From IMG/VR virus record IMGVR_UViG_3300018719_000034, positions 1-54,048 of that record: a stretch of 54,048 bases of DNA, one strand, 5' to 3'. This stretch comes from a virus. Under the pieces are notes generated by a model that did not search any database, had not been told where the DNA came from, and saw nothing but the letters and a program-made list of their open reading frames with translations. The position numbers and the translations under genes are program-made. Positions within the stretch are counted from its first letter, which is position 1. Every line of letters begins with the position of its first letter. This document shows, in pieces, positions 27,624-38,514 of the stretch.

Positions 27624-27766
27624 AGCCTCCTCCTATAGAAGCTGTTCCTAGATGAAGGTGTGCGTCAGGCCGCTAGGAAACGGCTTTTCGGGAGCTACCC
27701 TAGACGCACAAGGTATTTGTATCTGTTCTCGATAAGATTTGCGACTGCTGATGCCGAATGTTCACA

Positions 27767-34590: not shown

Positions 34591-34704
34591 CTACCTCAGC
34601 CAGCCGTTTCGCTCGGCAATGGCCATCTGCACATAGATGCCGGGAGAAACCTCGACCATCACAGCCCCATCGAGTGTGCGGGTGTAACTTCTTCGCTTTG
34701 ACAT
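34591..34704 (-). CDS. 37-residue basic peptide
   Basis: The frame from ATG 34704 encodes MSKRRSYTRTLDGAVMVEVS, then PGIYVQMAIAERNGWLR. It directly follows a terminator and precedes the membrane peptide by four bases. No strong ribosome binding site is seen. Real but unknown, or chance. Confidence 0.4.
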   Translation of the reverse strand: MSKRRSYTRTLDGAVMVEVSPGIYVQMAIAERNGWLR

Positions 34705-34713
34705 TTGGGCATG

Positions 34714-34765
34714 AAAAAGCCCCTGTGCTCGCTTCGGGCAGAGTGCCGAAGGTACTGGCAGGGGC
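34714..34765 (-). terminator. Large terminator-like hairpin at the head of the late region
   Basis: On the minus strand GCCCCTG pairs with CAGGGGC around a structured loop (inner CTTCGGCA/TGCCCGAAG), followed by TTTTT. It separates the 35160-36277 gene pair from the late genes. Late transcription must start below it or pass it by antitermination. Confidence 0.7.
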
Positions 34766-34930
34766 GGGTCCTAGAAACGCTAACGCACTCAGGGTGAAAT
34801 CACCGCCGAGCGCTATGTGAAGATATAACTAGCGCATGAGCTATTCGGTTGCAAGTGAGAAGCGACAGGTTATCCCCATCGCCTCTCTGCTGGCATCAGC
34901 CGAGACCTAACTAGCCCTGCCAAAACAGAA

Positions 34931-35151
34931 CCCGCCAGAACCTACCTCACCTGCCCCGCCCTGCCTTTCCCCGACCGACCTAACCCTGCCTTGCCTGCCA
35001 TGCCTGCCTCGCCTTGCCTCACGCGACCGTACCTCGCCATCCCCGGCCTTGCCTCACCACACCTGCCCTGCCGTGCCTCACCGCAACAGACCTGAACTAA
35101 ACACGCCTTGCCTGCCCAACCGTACCTCACCCCACCTAACCCAACCACGCC
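34931..35151. repeat. Degenerate pentanucleotide repeat tract
   Basis: Over about 220 bases, CC recurs at intervals of almost exactly five bases with three variable bases between (units such as CTACC, TCACC, TGCCT, TTGCC). Uninterrupted five-base registers run at about 35028-35068, 35072-35117 and 35121-35151, with single-base phase changes between. Read on the minus strand this is an AGG/GGN series resembling repeated Shine-Dalgarno cores. No repeat unit is conserved, so it is not a CRISPR array or simple microsatellite. The frame crossing it (34942-35244, minus) is a low-complexity artefact. Confidence 0.8.
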
Positions 35152-35159
35152 AATAGCCC

Positions 35160-35639
35160 TCATGCTGCCTTTTGCGGCTGCATGTTCTCGATAACAGCGA
35201 AGAGACGGGCGAACTCTACAAGTTCTGAATGCCTCTTGCGCCAATCCTGCAATTCCTTCCAGGCCTGTGCAAGGACCTGAGCCCGCAACTCGGCGTCAGA
35301 CATCGCGTGGACGACCGAAGTATATGAGCGGTCCTCATCACGCCGGACGTTGACGAACGCTCGGATTGGCTCCTTGCCTTGGTCTGTTTCGCCGTCGCCC
35401 ACCATCGTAATCATGCGGATGACATAGCCAGCCTGTGTGAGGCGGTACTGATGGGCGGCTTTCTTGTCGTTCCACTCAAAAGCAGGATGCAGCGGATTGT
35501 CTTTGTTCCGGGCCTCTTGAACCACATCCTCTTGCGTCAAACGCCCGTTGCGAGAGACGCGGATGCGTTCAAGCTCCTCACCAGCTGCTTGGGCGGGCAC
35601 CGGGACGCCCGCTTGTGGTTTCCAGAAGTAAGTTGTCAT
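35160..35639 (-). CDS. Conserved phage protein of unknown function beside the repeat tract
   Basis: The 159-residue product begins MTTYFWKPQAGVPVPAQAAGEELERIRVSRNGRLTQEDVVQEA, then KDNPLHPAFEWNDKKAAHQYRLTQAGYVIRMI and a helical end (SDAELRAQVLAQAWKELQDWRKRHSELVEFARLFAVIE). The 'HPAFEWdd..AAh.yRl.qA..lIR' block recurs in phage proteins of Rhizobiales that always follow a gene like 35642, but no activity is known to me. Its stop codon lies nine bases from the pentanucleotide tract. It forms a pair with the next gene, two bases apart. Confidence 0.75.
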   Translation of the reverse strand: MTTYFWKPQAGVPVPAQAAGEELERIRVSRNGRLTQEDVVQEARNKDNPLHPAFEWNDKKAAHQYRLTQAGYVIRMITMVGDGETDQGKEPIRAFVNVRRDEDRSYTSVVHAMSDAELRAQVLAQAWKELQDWRKRHSELVEFARLFAVIENMQPQKAA

Positions 35640-35641
35640 GA

Positions 35642-36277
35642 TTACACCTCCACTCCACTAGCGACATGGAAACGGCCATAGACGCCATCGCGTTCAGGCC
35701 GCCACTCTCCAACACCGACCGCAAAACCGGCCGTCTGGAACAGGTTCACCACTTGAGCCGCCGACATGACGTTGGCGTTGTATTTGACCGTAAGAATTGC
35801 CGACCACGGGTCGAACTCGCCGCGATATCGAAGATCAGCCGTTCCCATGCCGACGCGGGCAATGTCCTCGCGCATGGACGGAGGGGGCCCTTTGATCTCC
35901 ACGAACTCGCCCTCGACGTGAAACGCCTGACGAGCTGCCACCTTCGTGATTGAGCCAATGGAGGTGCAGGCAGTCACAGCGGCAGCCTTGAAGGCCACGG
36001 CAGGGAAGCCAAAGCGGCCCTTTTGCACGTCCTCTTCGCTCGGCTGATCCGGCATGCCGTCGAGCCAATACATGCTTTCCACGAAGTCGCGCCAAGGGTC
36101 TTTGGCCTCACGGCCTGCCGACGCCTTCTTGGTCTGTTTGGCGAGCATCTGCTCACGAGCCTTCTTGGAGAAGGCATGAACGATCAGCGGGCTATCCCCG
36201 ACGATGGGAATTTCGATGGTCTTGATAGCCAGAGGAGGCAACTCGATAGCGACGCTGGAACTTGACTTAGCAACCAT
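35642..36277 (-). CDS. Conserved phage protein, possible RAMP/Cas7-like fold
   Basis: ATG 36277 follows AAAGGAGACCGTA, giving 211 residues. Recognisable blocks are IPIVGDSPLIVHAFSKKAREQMLAKQ (about 24-49), GFPAVAFKAAAVTAC (about 90-104), SMREDIARVGMGTADLRYR (about 131-150) and ILTVKYNANVMSAAQVVNLFQTAGFAVGVGEWRP followed by DGVYGRF. The last block reads as beta-alpha-beta ending in a glycine-rich loop, resembling RAMP proteins of CRISPR effector complexes. There is no cas gene or array here, so the similarity is a fold-level inference only. Members of this family occur in many phages, usually next to a partner like 35160. Confidence 0.75.
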   Translation of the reverse strand: MVAKSSSSVAIELPPLAIKTIEIPIVGDSPLIVHAFSKKAREQMLAKQTKKASAGREAKDPWRDFVESMYWLDGMPDQPSEEDVQKGRFGFPAVAFKAAAVTACTSIGSITKVAARQAFHVEGEFVEIKGPPPSMREDIARVGMGTADLRYRGEFDPWSAILTVKYNANVMSAAQVVNLFQTAGFAVGVGEWRPERDGVYGRFHVASGVEV

Positions 36278-36327: not shown

Positions 36328-36406
36328 TGATACTGTTCGTCAACCAAAAATAACCGAGGCGGTTAAAATGATTGCCCTGAGTAAGCGTCCTGTGTACGAA
36401 GCGGCT

Positions 36407-36643
36407 ATGATTACGCCCGCTCAAATCCGCGCTGCCCGTGCCCTGCTCGGCTGGAAACAGACCGACCTAGCGGAAGCCTCTGGCGTGTCCGAGATGAGCG
36501 TGAAGAATATCGAGCGCGGCGCGTCCGACCCTCGCATGAGCACCCTTCGGGCCTTGCAGGAGGCGTTCGAGGCTCATGGGGTGATCTTCCTTGAGCCGGG
36601 AACGAACCGGGAGGGCGGCCATGGGGTGCGCTTCAAAGGCTGA
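36407..36643 (+). CDS. XRE-family HTH regulator
   Basis: Starting at ATG 36407 the product is 78 residues, a length common for this family: MITPAQIRAARALLGWKQTDLAEASGVSEMSVKNIERGASDP is a complete five-helix XRE domain. The tail ALQEAFEAHGVIFLEPGTNREGGHGVRFKG is typical of its close relatives. The upstream 13 codons to 36368 are unlikely to be translated. It is divergent from the 36277-35160 pair and convergent with the NusG-like gene, so it probably represses the pair through the repeats at 36300. Confidence 0.85.
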   Translation: MITPAQIRAARALLGWKQTDLAEASGVSEMSVKNIERGASDPRMSTLRALQEAFEAHGVIFLEPGTNREGGHGVRFKG

Positions 36644-36646
36644 CCG

Positions 36647-37315
36647 CTACTCCGCCGCCTCCAGCCGCTGCAATTCCGTTGCCTTGATCTTCACCTTCGA
36701 TGCCCTGCCCATGATGTCGAGCACCACCTCCACCCTGCCCTTTGAGAGCATGGACACGACTTGTGCCTGAAGGTCTGCGAAGGCTCCGACAGTAAGCCGC
36801 ACGACCTCGCCAGGGTTGTACTGAGGGCCAACGTCCGGCAGGCGGGTGAAGTCGAACTCGCCGGCCAACTCCCGCTCAAGCAACCGCGTGAGCGGGCCTA
36901 CGGGCACCTCGACAGGCACCCCCTCGAAGCGGACCACCTTCTCGACACCGTCGACGCCCCGGAGATTGTAGAGATCCTGTCCGCCCTCATTCACGGGCCG
37001 CCCGTAATTCTTCAGACCAATGAACAAATATCTCGGGAACAAGGGCGACTCCCGGGCTTCCTTCTTGCGGGCGTGCACGACCCAGCGCTTGGTCTGTGGC
37101 AAGTAGGTCTGATACCCGGCACGACGGAGGCCGAGCTGCGCCCTCCTCTCGCACTTGGGATTGCAGACGACGACGAACCAGGTGAAGCCTTCGAAGGACT
37201 CCGGAGGCTCGTGGTTGATGGGCGGCACTTCCCGGAACTGAGATACCAGATCCGGGGCGAGCTGCATAAGCCCTTGGGCTTCGGCAGACAGTTGAAGGCG
37301 GGGGAGATTGGTCAT
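36647..37315 (-). CDS. NusG/RfaH-like transcription elongation factor
   Basis: ATG 37315 overlaps the methyltransferase stop as TAATG. The 222-residue product has an NGN domain (FEGFTWFVVVCNPKCERRAQLGLRRAGYQTYLPQTKRWVVHARKKEARESPLFPRYLFIGL, about residues 42-102) and a C-terminal KOW-type region (YNPGEVVRLTVGAFADLQAQVVSMLSKGRVEVVLDIMGR). NusG paralogues bind RNA polymerase and modulate termination. In a phage early operon this one could let polymerase pass the terminators at 44041 and 34714. Confidence 0.85.
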   Translation of the reverse strand: MTNLPRLQLSAEAQGLMQLAPDLVSQFREVPPINHEPPESFEGFTWFVVVCNPKCERRAQLGLRRAGYQTYLPQTKRWVVHARKKEARESPLFPRYLFIGLKNYGRPVNEGGQDLYNLRGVDGVEKVVRFEGVPVEVPVGPLTRLLERELAGEFDFTRLPDVGPQYNPGEVVRLTVGAFADLQAQVVSMLSKGRVEVVLDIMGRASKVKIKATELQRLEAAE

Positions 37316-38514
37316 TATTCGGCTGCCTGTAGCTGGGGGATGGAGATCAGGTCTTCGACGGCTTGGATGCGCTCGCCGATGAAACGCATGCAGGGGACGG
37401 CCATGGAGTTGCCGAGGGCCTTGTATCGGGGGCCATCGGGGGGCATGCCCTTGCGCCAGGGGGTCAGGGTGTAATCGTCGGGGAAGCCCTGAAGGCGCTC
37501 GCACTCGCGGGGAGTGAGACGACGGGCAGACGATCGAGCGAGCAGACCGATCGTCTGCCCGTCGGTGTCGAGCGGGCCAGTCATGTCGCCATACTGGCAG
37601 ACGTCAGACTGGCGGGCATCAAATGCATGCGCGATCAGGTTTTCATGGCTGTCCTGCGCCCTGCCGCGCAGAGTGCCGAAGCCTTCTTGCCAGAAGCCCG
37701 CGCCGGTTGTGTGGACGGGCACGAGAGGAGTGCCGCGCCCGGTGCCGTCCTCTGATGCGTCGAAGCCTTCACCGCGTAAGGAATGAGCGACGAGCGTCTC
37801 GGTCTCGTAGTCCTGCCGCCCCATGCCGCCCGCATTCAGGCAATGTGCCACATTGCCTGTCGAGGGGATCAAGTGCCCTGCCTGTCCTTGGTTGCCGTCT
37901 GCGCCACATGTTCCAACGCCGTTTGCAGTGAGGGCGGCAACTGCCTCCCGCGCTTTTCGGCTCGGCGCAGAATGCCCTTGCAGGCTGTGGCGCTCAAAAA
38001 GAACCGCTGCGGCAGGTCGCCAGTCTCCAAGATATCCGACAACGAAGACGCGACGGCGCCGCTGTGGAACTCCAAAGTACTGAGCGTCAAGCACTCGGTA
38101 GGCGAACCCATACCCGAGTTCGACCATGCCCCCGAGAATGGCACCAAAGTCCCGTCCTCCGTTCGATGACAGGACGCCGGGGACGTTCTCCCAAACCAGC
38201 CATCGGGGCCGTGTGCGGTCAGCCAGCCTAAGATACTCGAGCGCCAGGTTACCGCGCCCGTCTGCCAATCCGCCTCTGAGGCCCGCGACCGAGAAGGATT
38301 GGCAGGGAGTTCCGCCGACAAGAAGGTCAATTGCATCGTACTCGTCGCCTTTGATAGTGGTGAAGTCGCCGTGCAGCGGCACATGCGGGTAGTGGTGCTG
38401 AAGGACAGCGCGGGGGAACGCCTCGATCTCGCTGAAGAACGAGGGCTTCCATCCGAGAGGATGCCAAGCGACGGTTGCCGCTTCGATGCCGGAACAGACG
38501 GAACCGTACCTCAT
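37315..38514 (-). CDS. dcm: C5 cytosine-specific DNA methyltransferase
   Basis: The 399-residue product carries the motifs in order: I (LFSG-type, here SVCSGIEAATVAW), IV with catalytic Cys (GGTPCQSFSVAG), VI (VWENVPGVL), VIII (QRRRRVFVVG) and X (GPRYKALGNSMAVPC). The target recognition domain between about residues 170 and 330 is unusual and short in conserved features. It transfers a methyl group from S-adenosylmethionine to cytosine, probably protecting phage DNA. No partner restriction gene is present. The gene overlaps HTH genes upstream by ATGA. Confidence 0.95.
   Translation of the reverse strand: MRYGSVCSGIEAATVAWHPLGWKPSFFSEIEAFPRAVLQHHYPHVPLHGDFTTIKGDEYDAIDLLVGGTPCQSFSVAGLRGGLADGRGNLALEYLRLADRTRPRWLVWENVPGVLSSNGGRDFGAILGGMVELGYGFAYRVLDAQYFGVPQRRRRVFVVGYLGDWRPAAAVLFERHSLQGHSAPSRKAREAVAALTANGVGTCGADGNQGQAGHLIPSTGNVAHCLNAGGMGRQDYETETLVAHSLRGEGFDASEDGTGRGTPLVPVHTTGAGFWQEGFGTLRGRAQDSHENLIAHAFDARQSDVCQYGDMTGPLDTDGQTIGLLARSSARRLTPRECERLQGFPDDYTLTPWRKGMPPDGPRYKALGNSMAVPCMRFIGERIQAVEDLISIPQLQAAE

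What the first reader, a model, noticed from the sequence alone, without database searches (positions are those of the whole stretch)
34931..35151. Degenerate 5-bp periodicity over ~220 bases without a conserved unit
Unlike microsatellites, only the CC positions are fixed and the other three bases vary. Phase is kept for 9-10 units at a time and changes by single bases. On the minus strand, the sense of the adjacent genes, it reads as AGG every five bases, resembling consecutive Shine-Dalgarno cores or protein-binding half-sites. Selection for spacing and not for sequence is unusual.
Basis: seen in the sequence. Interest (0 to 1): 0.65.

Follow-up and report, generated by a model that had tools for sequence, protein, structure and literature searches.

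The report
Phage guide-RNA array of VIPR type
The odd five-base rhythm is a phage's array of guide RNAs for VIPR, a CRISPR-like weapon described in 2026, and the guides in this phage can be decoded and point at genes of rival phages while its own copies of two of those genes carry changes that avoid them.

Summary
In detail: minus strand 34911-35151 is 50 GGY-NN units (44 of 5 nt, 5 of 4 nt), 104 bits against at most 20 in shuffles. It is not a decayed microsatellite or a run of Shine-Dalgarno cores. It is a VIPR guide-RNA array (vrRNAs), a system reported in a 2026 preprint (PMC13142463). Of 120 such tracts, 114 found by DNA pattern alone, 96 have one protein family in the same locus (median 35 nt away, 95 on the same strand). 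The window's member (35642-36277, minus) matches the solved SUSP1 Vipr (profile E 1.5e-41) and folds like CRISPR Csm3/Cas7. The single-base phase changes are 4-nt GGCA units that separate guides of 7-11 units. Read with the 1-nt-skip code, guide 4 perfectly matches the PLFPRYLF codons of the NusG-like antiterminator in 34 contigs, guide 5 a small gene of the same operon, and guide 2 (22/22) a DUF927 gene that a sister phage's guide also hits. The phage's own antiterminator encodes PLFPRYLF with TTG/AGA/TTG, mismatching its guide at all three residues where synonymous codons can. The kind is known; the decoded targets and this apparent self-avoidance are the new part.

The parts
34911..35151 (-). 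vrRNA (guide) array: 50 GGY-NN units, 44 of 5 nt and 5 of 4 nt
35117..35151 (-). guide block 0: GT TG TA GG GA AC TG (7 units; target not identified)
35068..35112 (-). guide block 1: AA GT TA CA CT GC GA AC AG (9 units); single exact hit L381:2919-2944, in frame (KVYHLAETS); tentative
35009..35063 (-). guide block 2: GT GA AA CG AT GA AC CG GA AA GA (11 units); 22/22 match to a DUF927 gene, L380:5329-5360
34956..34995 (-). guide block 4: AA AG TA CG GG AA AG GG (8 units); exact match to PLFPRYLF codons of the NusG-like antiterminator in 34 viral contigs
34912..34951 (-). guide block 5: GA AG CT GG CT TT AG TA (8 units); exact match to the ERLGLLR-stop end of a small gene in the same rival operon
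34952..35116 (-). stretch holding the five 4-nt GGCA units that separate the guides (35113-35116, 35064-35067, 35005-35008, 34996-34999, 34952-34955)
35642..36277 (-). vipr gene, RAMP/Cas7-like protein (phrog_4652)
35160..35639 (-). conserved accessory gene (phrog_15946), candidate vap; winged-helix-like fold only weakly indicated
36647..37315 (-). the phage's own NusG-like antiterminator (phrog_6386), homologue of the gene hit by guide block 4
37023..37045 (-). own PLFPRYLF site written CCC TTG TTC CCG AGA TAT TTG TTC: 3 mismatches to guide block 4, all synonymous
34591..34704 (-). own homologue of the small gene hit by guide block 5, ending AERNGWLR instead of AERLGLLR

Best explanation
The tract is the guide array of a VIPR system (vipr, accessory gene, array, in that order, one direction). 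Shown here: the protein family and its fold, its tight link to such tracts, the division of the array into guides by 4-nt GGCA units, and gapped matches of the guides to phage genes. Inferred from the preprint: the array is transcribed with the genes, the RNA is bound by a row of Vipr subunits that hold the GGY bases, and the NN pairs together read double-stranded DNA with one skipped base per pair, repressing transcription of the target. In this phage the guides point at genes of rival phages: a NusG-like antiterminator, a small gene of the same operon, a DUF927 gene and perhaps one further small gene. Its own copies of the first two carry changes that break the match.
For: Vipr profile of 94 relatives hits PDB 36pp 'SUSP1 Vipr protein' at E 1.5e-41, and the family HMM hits SUSP1 agp039 at 1e-46. 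The model (pLDDT 93.5) resembles Csm3/Cas7 (best VIA-align Z 11.3, rmsd 3.4 over 152 residues; best Foldseek match a type VII CRISPR-Cas chain, E 9e-6). 96 of 120 tracts have the family in the locus, 95 same strand, median 34.5 nt. Positive control: the same finder recovers one vrRNA upstream and three downstream of SUSP1 vipr, as the preprint reports. Targets: guide 4, 57 exact hits of which 34 in one gene family; guide 5 hits several of the same contigs; guide 2 22/22 in frame. Guides of sister phage L001, not used to fetch the targets, gave 2 hits at skip 1, none at skips 0, 2 and 3, and 0 or 1 in 150 unit-order shuffles; one lies in the same DUF927 gene as guide 2.
Against: No RNA data. 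No conserved 3' tail, part of the SUSP1 vrRNA, was identified between or after these guides. The accessory gene is not homologous to SUSP1 vap1 by profile. Block 0 has no target, block 3 is a single unit, and the block 1 hit alone is near chance. Some scaffold units deviate (GTT, GTC, CGT).
Confidence: 0.95

Rival explanations
1. A pentanucleotide microsatellite that expanded by slippage and then decayed.
For: The tract is 5-periodic; true microsatellites such as (GGCAA)n and (GGGCA)n do occur in some viral contigs.
Against: In 96 Vipr-linked pieces each G of GG is about 90% conserved while all 16 NN pairs occur at 3-11%. Blocks keep a guide-like length between GGCA units, and the NN bases match rival genes in frame.
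Confidence: 0.02
2. Series of Shine-Dalgarno-like cores or a protein sponge in the 3' UTR, acting on ribosomes or on a CsrA-type protein.
For: AGG about every five bases in the sense of the genes; the tract directly follows a gene.
Against: The base before GG is not fixed (unit position 5: A 0.28, C 0.23, G 0.21, T 0.28). Linkage is to a RAMP protein family, and the code finds targets.
Confidence: 0.01
3. A low-complexity protein is encoded (window ORF 34942-35244 minus; annotated as gp48 in mycobacteriophage Donkeykong).
For: An ORF runs through the tract in the window, and a CDS is annotated over the Donkeykong tract.
Against: The 4-nt units shift the frame at every guide boundary and the units are 5 nt, so no one reading is kept between relatives. 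The ORF exists because GGYNN units contain few stops (inference).
Confidence: 0.01

Closest known systems
VIPR of Escherichia phage SUSP1 (preprint PMC13142463; PDB 36pp)
   Same: Homologous Vipr (HMM 1e-46); GGY/NN repeats next to vipr on the same strand; the 1-nt-skip reading gives in-frame matches with the skip at codon position 3.
   Different: Here guides are contiguous in one array, separated by GGCA units with no tail seen between them; the accessory gene is from a different family (phrog_15946).
Other VIPR types of the preprint, including 'staggered arrays with overlapping vrRNAs'
   Same: The array form named there (fig. S18, not readable here) may be this one.
Class 1 CRISPR-Cas (Csm3, Cas7)
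   Same: RAMP fold; RNA-guided recognition by a row of subunits.
   Different: No repeat-spacer array; the guide is gapped; one small gene.
Mycobacterium phage Donkeykong gp48-gp50 (NC_051648)
   Same: Tract, Vipr (42.6% identity) and phrog_15946 homologue together.
   Different: The tract lies before vipr and is annotated as a protein.

Membership tests
VIPR | Vipr: single-domain RAMP protein | tested here: met
   Profile match to SUSP1 Vipr E 1.5e-41; Cas7/Csm3-like model.
VIPR | Adjacent tandem repeats, fixed GGY and hypervariable NN (9-16 units per vrRNA in the preprint) | tested here: met
   7-11 units per block here; G 0.92/0.90, Y 0.94, NN near-uniform over 96 linked pieces.
VIPR | Non-contiguous DNA code with 1-nt skip | tested here: met
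   In silico only.
VIPR | Targets competing mobile elements | tested here: met
   Hits in phage antiterminator, DUF927 and portal-like genes; no Vipr found in 17 of the 20 antiterminator-bearing records searched whole, one of the other three being L001 itself.
VIPR | Carried by a phage or prophage | tested here: met
   Terminase large subunit 64-67% identical to Pseudomonas and Klebsiella phages, HNH endonucleases and a NusG-like antiterminator.
VIPR | vipr-accessory (vap) gene | tested here: inconclusive
   Conserved neighbour phrog_15946 near 38 of 120 tracts, not homologous to SUSP1 vap1; vap2-6 sequences not available.
VIPR | Structured 3' tail on each vrRNA | tested here: inconclusive
   None apparent between blocks; terminator-like hairpins follow the array in L002, L003, L378, L379.
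VIPR | Expressed vrRNA bound by Vipr; repression of targets | not testable with these tools
   Needs RNA and protein work.
CRISPR-Cas | Array of identical repeats with unique spacers | tested here: not met
   Tandem Repeats Finder shows only short local matches in the tract.

The most novel reading that the evidence does not exclude
VIPR phages tell self from non-self by synonymous recoding at six-fold degenerate codons. Because the skipped base falls on codon position 3, a guide against a conserved protein motif also threatens the phage's own copy, and the only silent escape is to swap Leu CTN/TTR or Arg CGN/AGR. The window does so at all three possible residues of PLFPRYLF. Compared with it, sister phage L001 has a guide switched at the Arg unit (reads AGR instead of CGN) and its own Arg codon switched the opposite way (CGG instead of AGA).
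Probability: 0.5. Interest if true: 0.75.

Novelty: new member of a known kind. Interest (0 to 1): 0.62.

Why it matters
VIPR was proposed in 2026 as a precursor of CRISPR. This locus gives a decodable array from a lineage other than the two tested in the preprint's main text, shows where guides begin and end in tail-less arrays (GGCA units), names targets (a conserved antiterminator motif and an operon neighbour), and suggests a concrete answer to how such a phage avoids silencing itself. It also explains protein-free or mis-annotated GGYNN tracts in many phage genomes.

Tried and rejected
Paper search for pentanucleotide repeats in phages: nothing. Search of all guides against the first 3.2 Mb of loci: no clear excess for any skip length, because rivals were not in that set. 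NN spectrum against codon positions: best correlation with codon positions 1-2 (r 0.58; others at most 0.23), but a flat spectrum fits almost as well by KL, so it is not used as proof. The 15-nt GGTTAGGTAAGGATA repeats first mixed in by the AGG pattern lie in or beside a replication-type gene family of other phages and are a different thing. Structure search with the accessory protein gave only weak winged-helix-like matches (Z 6), so no function is claimed. Self-avoidance: L472/L473 (apparently one phage species) also carry TTG/AGG/TTG but a different, single-guide VIPR without that guide, so they do not count as carriers. 'Relatives' could not be drawn for a virus record. The host was not identified; the nearest Vipr in a sample of 397 genomes of the order of Aureimonas is 63% identical.

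Full report
OBSERVATION. The 5-base periodicity is real and far beyond chance. Read on the minus strand, 34911-35151 consists of units GG-pyrimidine-NN. Its only phase changes are five 4-nt units, all GGCA, which cut it into blocks of 7, 9, 11, 1, 8 and 8 units.

SURROUNDINGS. Upstream on the same strand lie phrog_15946 (35160-35639), phrog_4652 (35642-36277), a NusG-like antiterminator (36647-37315) and a C5 DNA methylase (37315-38514). No Pfam family covers the first two.

RELATIVES. Pattern scans of viral contigs and genomes, plus five loci from a protein search and the window, gave 120 long degenerate GGYNN tracts in 104 loci, up to 1556 nt. In 96 of the 120 a homologue of phrog_4652 lies in the locus, 95 on the same strand, median distance 34.5 nt; phrog_15946 accompanies 38. 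Leaving out the six tracts chosen by protein, the link still holds for 90 of 114 found by DNA pattern alone.

WHAT IT IS. A profile of 94 family members matches one PDB chain well, 36pp 'SUSP1 Vipr protein', E 1.5e-41. [quoted passage not shown]) describes VIPR: a RAMP protein plus vrRNAs of alternating GGY/NN, in which the NN pairs read DNA with one skipped base, usually the codon wobble position. The AlphaFold2 model of the window protein (pLDDT 93.5) is Cas7/Csm3-like. As a positive control, the tract finder used here recovers one vrRNA before and three after the SUSP1 vipr gene, as the preprint states.

GUIDE BOUNDARIES. Over 59 array pieces with three or more 4-nt units, these are mostly GGCA and stand most often with 9-12 five-nt units between them. 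Guide 2 confirms the boundary: the 22-base match covers exactly the 11 units between two GGCA units and stops there (one search shows the codons on either side, GGC and CTT, which do not fit the neighbouring units). The preprint mentions staggered arrays in a supplementary figure that could not be read, so this may be known.

TARGETS. [quoted passage not shown] the four outer bases match as well (22/22), in frame, with the skip on codon position 3, in a DUF927 gene of an integrase-bearing contig. Guide 1 (18 bases) hits one contig, in frame, in a small gene; alone this is near chance for a collection of that size. Guide 4 (16 bases) hits 57 contigs, 34 of them in the same gene at the codons for PLFPRYLF of the NusG-like antiterminator. 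Guide 5 (16 bases) hits 22, about ten of them at the ERLGLLR-stop end of a small gene, and several contigs carry both sites. The targeted operon is the syntenic one: in L001 the VIPR cassette sits between the antiterminator gene and the small gene. The sister phage L001, whose guides (other than the homologue of guide 4) played no part in fetching these contigs, gives a perfect 18-base match to the same DUF927 gene and a 23/24 match to a portal-like gene (by resemblance to a Pfam-confirmed portal, L381:5759-6973). There were no hits of these guides at skips 0, 2 or 3, and 150 unit-order shuffles gave 0 (149 times) or 1 (once).

SELF-AVOIDANCE (suggestive). Antiterminator homologues were then collected by protein similarity with patterns outside the motif, so their motif codons were not selected. 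All 13 that have the motif and come from records without a detected Vipr match guide 4 perfectly (CTN, CGN, CTN). The window's own gene encodes the same eight residues with TTG, AGA, TTG: three mismatches at exactly the three residues where a synonymous change can alter codon positions 1-2. With the window's codon usage (TTR 13% of Leu, AGR 16.5% of Arg; counts) all three would occur by chance at about 0.003; with that gene's own usage, about 0.014. L001's guide differs at one base, in the Arg unit (reads AGR), and its own gene has CGG there, again with both TTG codons: three mismatches to its own guide. The window's copy of the small gene differs too (AERNGWLR), by amino-acid changes. Limits: two related carriers, and one further phage species (L472/L473) has TTG/AGG/TTG without the guide. 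The preprint's main text says the skip defeats wobble changes; it does not mention six-fold codons.

HOW IT WORKS. Most likely the array is the 3' part of the vipr operon transcript. Terminator-like hairpins follow it in relatives L002, L003, L378 and L379; in the window a GC-rich inverted repeat followed by Ts near 34716-34768 was seen by eye only. Processing, Vipr binding and repression are taken from the preprint and were not tested here. phrog_15946 is a candidate accessory protein; its fold gives only weak winged-helix-like matches, and SUSP1 vap1 is not its homologue.

VERDICT. A new member of a known, very recently described kind, with decoded targets and a testable self/non-self hypothesis.

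Noticed in passing
L014:4956-4996, L052:5453-5502, L064:1444-1509 and dozens of similar loci: Short AGG-5 repeats (GGTTAGGTAAGGATA, period 15) in or beside one gene family, often next to SSB- and helicase-loader-like genes; probably a replication origin or a coding repeat, not VIPR.
   Followed up: partly
L193:7607-9162: 1556-nt GGYNN array of 312 units with only four 4-nt units next to a Vipr gene; how its guides are delimited is unclear.
   Followed up: no
L364:5986-6372 (Mycobacterium phage Donkeykong gp48): An annotated hypothetical protein that lies over a vrRNA array; such ORFs in phage records are probably annotation artefacts.
   Followed up: partly
L479:1057-1777 and L480:1380-2100: A different, single-guide VIPR in records that also carry a recoded antiterminator motif (TTG/AGG/TTG), perhaps resistance to others' guides.
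   Followed up: partly
window 27646-27710 (-): int-alpA RNA (RF02996) above its gathering score.
   Followed up: no
window 36368-36643 (+): Helix-turn-helix gene (HTH_3) antisense to the VIPR operon, between the antiterminator and vipr; also next to the operon in L001.
   Followed up: no
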